In this document: positions 53,493 to 53,638 of the stretch, in pieces
Layout: each line of letters starts with the position of its first letter
Position numbering within the stretch: the first letter of the stretch is position 1
Source of the DNA: Melioribacteraceae bacterium
GTDB taxonomy: Bacteria > Bacteroidota > Ignavibacteria > Ignavibacteriales > Melioribacteraceae
Direction: 5' to 3'
Assembly (NCBI GenBank): GCA_027030245.1
Contig: JALVFE010000030.1
Coordinates: forward strand, 62,001 to 126,000
Length of the DNA stretch: 64,000 bases
Made by a program: the position numbers and the translations under genes
The notes under the pieces: model-generated
What the model saw: only the letters and a program-made list of their open reading frames with translations
Databases searched by the model: none
Told to the model about the DNA's origin: nothing

Positions 53493-53638
53493 GCCTAAAA
53501 CAATTTGCATTTAAAAATTCGTGCGGAGTAGCGTTAAAAAAATAATGCTGTTTGAGTCCCGGTATATCGGAAGATATAGCGGGACGAGTTCATTATTTTT
53601 AGCTACGTAGCTAAGAATTTTAGCAAATTGTTTTCAGC
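53493..53638. repeat. Long imperfect hairpin with GGAA tetraloop
   Basis: AAAACAATTTGC (53497-53508) pairs perfectly with GCAAATTGTTTT (53623-53634), and further blocks inside pair in order: AAAAATTC with GAATTTT, AAAAATAATG with CATTATTTTT. The tip is GTCCCGGTATATC (53556-53568), GGAA (53569-53572), GATATAGCGGGAC (53573-53585): 13 base pairs with one mismatch around a GNRA-type loop. The whole element folds on itself over about 145 bases. It looks like a MITE-type element or a structured RNA; no transposase is nearby. Confidence 0.8.

What the first reader, a model, noticed from the sequence alone, without database searches (positions are those of the whole stretch)
53493..53638. 145-bp self-complementary element tipped by a GGAA tetraloop
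Blocks along both arms pair in order, ending in a 13-pair stem with a GNRA-type loop. This is far too ordered for chance, is not a terminator, and has no open reading frame. It may be a non-autonomous transposable element or a transcribed structured RNA.
Basis: seen in the sequence. Interest (0 to 1): 0.7.

Follow-up and report, generated by a model that had tools for sequence, protein, structure and literature searches.

The report
Phylum-wide folded repeat with complementary tail
The stretch is one of many copies of a small, gene-less DNA repeat, found across the Bacteroidota bacteria, whose one strand folds into a precisely conserved shape; it seems to spread between genes, but what moves it and what it does are unknown.

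Summary
The hairpin is real (z -6.9, 0 of 200 shuffles as stable), but the reported 146 bp is only the 5' part of a ~199-bp element (53492-53690). The missed tail is a hairpin whose six-base loop (ATCAAG) is complementary to CTTGAT just upstream. The host, an Ignavibacteriales genome, holds 17 copies; a same-genus relative has a plain 194-bp gap at the orthologous place. A covariance model finds the family in 32 of 97 relatives and 70 of 296 Bacteroidota genomes (up to 55 copies in one), without any match in Rfam 15. In 86 aligned copies 54 of 55 pairs show compensatory changes. G-U far outnumbers A-C on the reported strand (78:17), so that strand folds. Copies lie between genes in either orientation, without a recurring partner gene phylum-wide. 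Neighbouring copies are tandem or head-to-head, never tail-to-tail within 1 kb. Reverse transcriptase, TnpB and IS110 genes were not found in the host; Y1 transposases are missing from a relative with 11 copies. Best reading: a non-autonomous, REP/MITE-like dispersed element with a selected RNA (or ssDNA) structure. Mobiliser, transcription and function remain unknown.

The parts
53492..53690 (+). Whole element: long interrupted hairpin plus tail hairpin
   Evidence: Model R1 matches 53492-53685 at 160.2 bits; host copies stay alike to about 53690; fold z -7.9
53492..53508 (+). 5' strand of the basal stem P1 (2x2 mismatch near its base)
   Evidence: Fold; compensatory changes in 10 of 15 pairs of this helix in A1
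53623..53639 (+). 3' strand of the basal stem P1
   Evidence: Pairs with 53492-53508
53538..53547 (+). 5' strand of the 10-pair upper stem
   Evidence: Pairs with 53591-53600; 9 of 10 pairs in A1 and 10 of 10 in A2 have changes on both sides
53591..53600 (+). 3' strand of the 10-pair upper stem
   Evidence: As above
53548..53590 (+). Conserved internal loop (TGTTTGAG / CGAGTT) around the variable apical hairpin; GGAA tip at 53569-53572
   Evidence: Loop letters nearly invariant in A1 and A2, apical hairpin variable
53639..53644 (+). CTTGAT, complementary to the loop of the tail hairpin
   Evidence: Variable base covaries with its loop partner in 71 of 74 tails
53655..53690 (+). Tail hairpin, 15 pairs, loop ATCAAG at 53670-53675
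   Evidence: Fold, pattern scan; helix pairs with changes on both sides 10 of 10 in A2

Best explanation
A non-autonomous, miniature dispersed (mobile) element of Bacteroidota whose function or mobility depends on the folded form of the window's + strand, as an RNA transcript or as single-stranded DNA. Shown: copies are dispersed in the host genome and absent from the orthologous gap of a same-genus species; one strand folds; the long hairpin and the tail complementarity are kept by compensatory change across the phylum; copies sit in intergenic DNA in either orientation; close neighbours are tandem or head-to-head. Inferred: an unidentified protein acting in trans recognises the folded form (conserved internal loops and tail); new copies arise preferentially on the 5' side of an existing copy, in either orientation, which would give tandem and head-to-head but not tail-to-tail neighbours. 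The tail hairpin and the CTTGAN:N'TCAAG pairing share the loop, so they form a tight pseudoknot or a two-state switch; which one is not known.
For: 17 copies in the host by model, 15 others 94-97% identical to this one at unrelated places. Orthologous gap in G003 is 194 bp without the element, 1465 bp in the window. Compensatory change in 36 of 55 pairs in A1 and 54 of 55 in A2, no shuffle of 500 reaching it. G-U over A-C 78:17. Tail covariation 71 of 74. Found in 32 of 97 relatives and 70 of 296 phylum genomes. No coding frame. Neighbour pairs under 400 bp: 45 direct, 16 head-to-head, 0 tail-to-tail.
Against: No mobiliser identified; no target-site duplication or exact junction seen; transposition itself was not observed, and duplication by recombination explains part of the arrays. 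The other repeats of the same gap show that the gap grew by more than this element. In G134 the conserved unit is longer, an apparent head-to-head pair with flanks, so the moving unit may differ between lineages. Transcription not tested.
Confidence: 0.6

Rival explanations
1. A functional non-coding RNA gene family serving host or phage, amplified by duplication, and not a selfish mobile element.
For: Strand-biased wobble pairs and very conserved loops; repeated presence in lysis regions of Ignavibacteriales prophages.
Against: Patchy presence (absent from 65 of 97 relatives), 0 to 55 copies, no constant neighbour gene, orientation to genes mixed: 32 same, 21 opposite, 11 convergent, 7 divergent, 6 at contig ends, of 77.
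Confidence: 0.15
2. A recombination site used as folded single-stranded DNA (attC-like) by a tyrosine recombinase, with cassettes between sites.
For: Imperfect hairpin with conserved unpaired bases and a variable tip; one-orientation arrays, in G060 with small genes between copies; a tyrosine recombinase lies beside copies in some prophages.
Against: I see no attC-type core at the ends (motif recalled); the recombinase belongs to those prophages and does not recur phylum-wide; arrays elsewhere are plain tandem repeats with their spacers; the structured tail is not an attC feature (recalled).
Confidence: 0.1
3. A neutral quasi-palindrome: pairing is kept by template-switch correction of inverted repeats and copies multiply by recombination, without any selected structure.
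For: The element lies in a mosaic of other palindromic repeats; loops are often invaded by other palindromes; tandem duplication is common.
Against: Correction should erase the internal mismatched loops, which are nearly invariant, and cannot give the 4.6:1 excess of G-U over A-C or keep the loop-to-upstream complementarity of the tail.
Confidence: 0.1

Closest known systems
REP elements and BIMEs (GTAG- and CGTC-tagged superfamilies; PMC3733652, passages read)
   Same: Dispersed extragenic palindromic repeats; singletons, head-to-head dimers and clusters; wobble pairs suggest transcripts; CGTC repeats likewise lack a known transposase and rarely form tail-to-tail dimers
   Different: REPs are 20-40 bp with one short stem; this is ~180-200 nt with a multi-part hairpin, conserved internal loops and a loop-complementary tail; no GTAG or CGTC tag at one end; no RAYT beside it
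Flavo-1 (Rfam RF01705)
   Same: Multi-copy structured motif of Bacteroidota, in either orientation to transcripts (PMC9723704, passage)
   Different: 76 positions; no match in the host or in G060, G065, G036, nor in any locus searched here with Rfam; the listed Flavo-1 places in shared genomes are not the R1 places
MITEs
   Same: Short, gene-less, dispersed, inverted-repeat structure
   Different: No target-site duplication and no parent transposon with the same ends seen; structure kept in detail inside the element, not only at its ends
HMP_4078, palindromic candidate RNA of gut Bacteroidetes (PMC8040213, passages)
   Same: Bacteroidetes, palindromic, near phage integrase and D5 domains, as some copies here
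   Different: 109 bp; sequence not available to me, so identity with the core of this element is neither shown nor excluded
Integron attC sites
   Same: Imperfect hairpin with conserved unpaired bases, one-orientation arrays
   Different: No attC core seen, no recurring integrase, extra structured tail

Membership tests
Known RNA family of Rfam 15 | Covariance-model match at or near the gathering score | tested here: not met
   No credible match over the element in the window or in 20 + 6 + 7 loci with copies at relaxed thresholds, nor in 6 loci at gathering threshold
Flavo-1 | RF01705 match at the element | tested here: not met
   0 matches in G000; in the 6 of 20 genomes with matches the listed places differ from R1 places (lists truncated)
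REP elements | 20-40 bp single palindrome tagged GTAG or CGTC | tested here: not met
   ~199 bp, several helices and tail; definition
REP elements (GTAG type) | RAYT (Y1) transposase flanked by the repeats | tested here: not met
   Y1 in 86 of 97 relatives, none of the listed genes next to an element, none in G106 with 11 elements (list truncated)
MITE / non-autonomous mobile element | Dispersed near-identical copies, no ORF, occupied and empty sites | tested here: met
   gap without element in G003
MITE / non-autonomous mobile element | Target-site duplication and terminal repeats shared with a transposon | tested here: inconclusive
   None visible by eye in host flanks or phage junctions, which are too diverged for exact junctions
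RT-mobilised (SINE-like) RNA | Reverse transcriptase in carrier genomes | tested here: not met
   None in G000; by hand tally 13 of 32 element-positive and 22 of 65 negative relatives have one
TnpB omega RNA | TnpB in carrier genomes | tested here: not met
   3 of 97 relatives have PF07282; only one of them (G101) carries elements
IS110 bridge RNA | IS110 recombinase in carrier genomes | tested here: not met
   None in G000; by hand tally 14 of 32 element-positive relatives lack it
Functional RNA | Conserved secondary structure with covariation | tested here: met
Functional RNA | Transcription | not testable with these tools
   No RNA-seq available; the strand bias of wobble pairs is indirect support only

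The most novel reading that the evidence does not exclude
A phylum-wide class of selfish nucleic acid whose mobility is directed by its own folded RNA or ssDNA: the loop-complementary tail and the conserved internal loops are the recognition code for an unknown Bacteroidota enzyme that places new copies on the 5' side of old ones, making oriented tandem and head-to-head arrays.
Probability: 0.2. Interest if true: 0.85.

Novelty: new variant of a known kind. Interest (0 to 1): 0.6.

Why it matters
A well-structured element found in about a quarter of the sampled Bacteroidota genomes, with up to 55 detected copies in one, has no Rfam match, and eight literature searches gave no description. If confirmed it would be a REP-like system of this phylum's own, explain many assembly breaks and long intergenic regions, and give a covariance model with which transcription data, strain comparisons and binding partners can be examined directly. 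The neighbour-orientation rule is a testable clue to an unknown mobilising reaction.

Tried and rejected
Rfam families: none fit. Flavo-1: separate family. Reverse transcriptase partner: suggested by an RT beside elements in L101, but Rfam shows a group II intron there, and RT presence is unrelated to element presence. TnpB, IS110 and Y1 partners: see membership tests. Operon leader or antitermination RNA (suggested by polysaccharide and lysis operons): rejected because orientation to genes is mixed. Intrinsic terminator: the tail is flagged as terminator-like in the window, but the relatives printed mostly lack a T run after the hairpin. A triple helix of the tail's T-rich stretch with the purine strand: first base against partner gave T-C 32, C-G 15, C-C 13, T-A 11, C-T 2, T-T 1, so only 26 of 74 fit canonical triples; dropped. 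The six-of-six loop complementarity taken alone is weak, because shuffled partners often match too (35% at 6 of 6); the covarying first position is the informative part. Literature: (search listings) gave no description; supplementary files could not be read.

Full report
OBSERVATION. The window stretch 53493-53638 folds end to end (MFE -51.6 kcal/mol; shuffles -27.4 +/- 3.5; z -6.9; 0 of 200 as stable). The opposite strand folds too (z -7.4). The blocks pair in order as described and end in a stem with a GGAA loop. That loop is not conserved: host copies carry GGAA, GGCA, GGTA or GACA, and relatives have apical hairpins of other lengths. There is no ORF of 80 aa or more across it.

EXTENT. 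Aligned host copies stay alike past the reported end to about 53690. The added tail holds a 15-pair hairpin at 53655-53690 with loop ATCAAG; six bases complementary to that loop, CTTGAT, lie at 53639-53644. The whole 199-nt unit folds at -70.5 kcal/mol, z -7.9.

COPIES IN THE HOST. A DNA search of the host gave 22 matches: 16 full or nearly full copies including the window's own, one copy cut by a contig start, one 78-base piece, one piece cut by a contig end, and three reverse-strand self matches caused by the palindrome. The 15 other full copies are 94-97% identical to the window copy. The covariance model counts 17. Many copies lie near contig ends, as expected if the repeats broke the assembly.

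EMPTY SITE. In G003, same genus, the same two genes are neighbours (flanking oxidoreductase 85% identical), with a 194-bp gap lacking the element; the window's gap is 1465 bp and holds several other repeat families. In G002 a different gene precedes the oxidoreductase. By model R1, G001 and G003 have no element and G002 has two partial ones.

FAMILY AND STRUCTURE. Thirteen diverse copies were aligned (A1); copies with long inserts were left out of this set. RNAalifold gave 50 pairs, 35 with changes on both sides. Model R1 was built from them. In the larger set A2 (86 rows, 85 distinct), with the tail complementarity added, 54 of 55 pairs have changes on both sides, 95.3% of cells are paired (72.6% shuffled), and 914 cells have double changes (277 shuffled); sliding the partners by 1-3 columns gives 42-54% paired. 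A2 is fitted to the model and so leans towards it; A1 (MAFFT, not fitted) gives 36 of 55 pairs and 127 cells against 42 shuffled, although its structure was derived from it. Relatedness inflates such counts, but the slid controls keep relatedness.

WHICH STRAND FOLDS. Among rows less than 85% alike, G-U exceeds A-C on the window's + strand: 27:6 in A1, 78:17 in A2, 67:14 in A3. A structure formed by the other strand, or plain palindrome correction, should not give this. It marks the + strand as the folding one; it does not tell RNA from ssDNA.

THE TAIL. Over 81 distinct tails, 67 have a six-base and 12 a five-base match of loop to upstream, but because CTTGA is itself conserved, shuffled partners also often match. 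The informative base is the variable one: of the 74 tails with the canonical motif, 71 have Watson-Crick partners of three kinds, 1 is G-T and 2 mismatch. In one sub-family I read by eye a different pair, GCGCA with TGCGC, and in G134's inverted partner GGCA with TGCC. Both stems use the loop, so full coexistence is sterically tight; a pseudoknot with frayed pairs or a two-state switch is inference. In A2 the tail pairing helix is 86% paired, lower than the others, partly because the alignment does not fit that sub-family.

DISTRIBUTION. R1 matches 32 of 97 relatives (E <= 1e-3; 23 of 61 genera) and 70 of 296 genomes drawn across the phylum (E <= 1e-5; 37 of 140 genera; at most 8 candidates scored per genome). 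In 10 chosen carriers counts were 5 to 55 (E <= 1e-4, at most 150 candidates scored). Records labelled Halanaerobium, Methanohalobium, Dojkabacteria and Lachnospiraceae also matched; the last three are MAGs and may be misbinned. Contig G004:C21 equals a named Ignavibacteriales MAG contig by length and match position, which places the host's family. Three IMG/VR contigs matched; no plasmid did with the window copy, and one phage record matched mainly at the tail.

CONTEXT. Of the 86 matches I used 77 (nine partial or weak ones dropped). By mechanical gene calls they lie between genes, with both neighbours in the element's direction in 32, both opposite in 21, convergent 11, divergent 7, six at contig ends. 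No gene family recurs beside copies across the phylum. Within Ignavibacteriales, copies recur in one kind of prophage, beside an HTH gene, a tyrosine recombinase and a Prim-Pol primase, and in lysis regions. Homologous phage junctions occur with and without the element, but are too diverged to define ends.

NEIGHBOURING COPIES. After dropping eight loci judged to repeat others, neighbours closer than 400 bp were 45 direct (18 loci) and 16 head-to-head (15 loci, 13 genome labels), 0 tail-to-tail; at 400-1000 bp, 10, 5 and 0; beyond 1 kb, tail-to-tail occurs (8 against 3 head-to-head). Equal odds for the two inverted forms give P = 3e-5 for 0 of 16, or 2e-4 for 0 of 13, but several Bacteroides MAGs may not be independent. 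In G134 (20 of 55 copies fetched) R1 finds the tail of an inverted partner beginning about 160 bp off the 5' end in 10 of 20 (E <= 0.02, where some unrelated weak hits score alike), and a conserved left flank of over 200 bp is visible in most. There the unit looks like a head-to-head pair. In other genomes tandem units repeat with their spacers, which is tandem duplication.

MOBILISER. The host assembly (97.7% complete) has no match for reverse transcriptase, TnpB or IS110. It has five Y1 transposases, but G106, with 11 elements, has none, and no listed Y1 gene lies next to an element (list truncated). Absence in drafts is not proof. Other transposase families were not tested.

PRIOR KNOWLEDGE. 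Eight literature searches gave no description. Passages read: PMC9723704 (Flavo-1 lies in either orientation to transcripts), PMC2864571 (motif table), PMC8040213 (a 109-bp palindromic Bacteroidetes candidate near phage integrase and D5 domains), PMC3733652 (REP superfamilies, dimers, CGTC repeats without a transposase). HMP_4078 might be a partial earlier sighting.

VERDICT. A genuine structured dispersed element of Bacteroidota without a match in Rfam 15, REP- or MITE-like in behaviour but not a member of the REP families; mobiliser, transcription and function open.

Noticed in passing
window 53005-54469: The gap is a mosaic of other repeats: palindromes such as CCCGAAACTAGTTCGGGATGACA and CGTCATGCCGAACTTGGTTCGGCATC (the latter resembles the CGTC-tagged REPs of PMC3733652), and a ~110-bp unit CACTCC.AGGAG..CACGCC..GGCG that recurs beside most host copies and also alone at about 54030-54110.
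   Followed up: partly
L101 about 596-2545 (minus strand of elements): A group II intron (D1-D4 and D5-D6 by Rfam, with its RT) sits next to an element tail and apparently inside an element, as known for class C introns at hairpins (recalled).
   Followed up: partly
L103 684-5771: A 2.5-kb unit of element plus two genes is tandemly duplicated, so element copies may promote duplications.
   Followed up: no
L099, L104, L114, L115, L116: A recurring Ignavibacteriales prophage module: HTH_17 gene, tyrosine recombinase, Prim-Pol/PriCT_2 primase, with elements in its gaps.
   Followed up: partly
G092, seven places (L098 44-113): A ~70-nt repeat matches only the upper stem and internal loop of the model (positions 36-115), perhaps a short relative or a chance likeness.
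   Followed up: no
L065 6100-10700: In G060 the elements share a polysaccharide locus with small genes that look like toxin-antitoxin and nucleotidyltransferase/HEPN pairs (by eye, not searched).
   Followed up: no
L010, L011, L014, L015, L008; L057; L063, L064: Short GC-rich palindromes are inserted inside elements at loops or junctions, for example a 21-bp piece between stem and tail.
   Followed up: no
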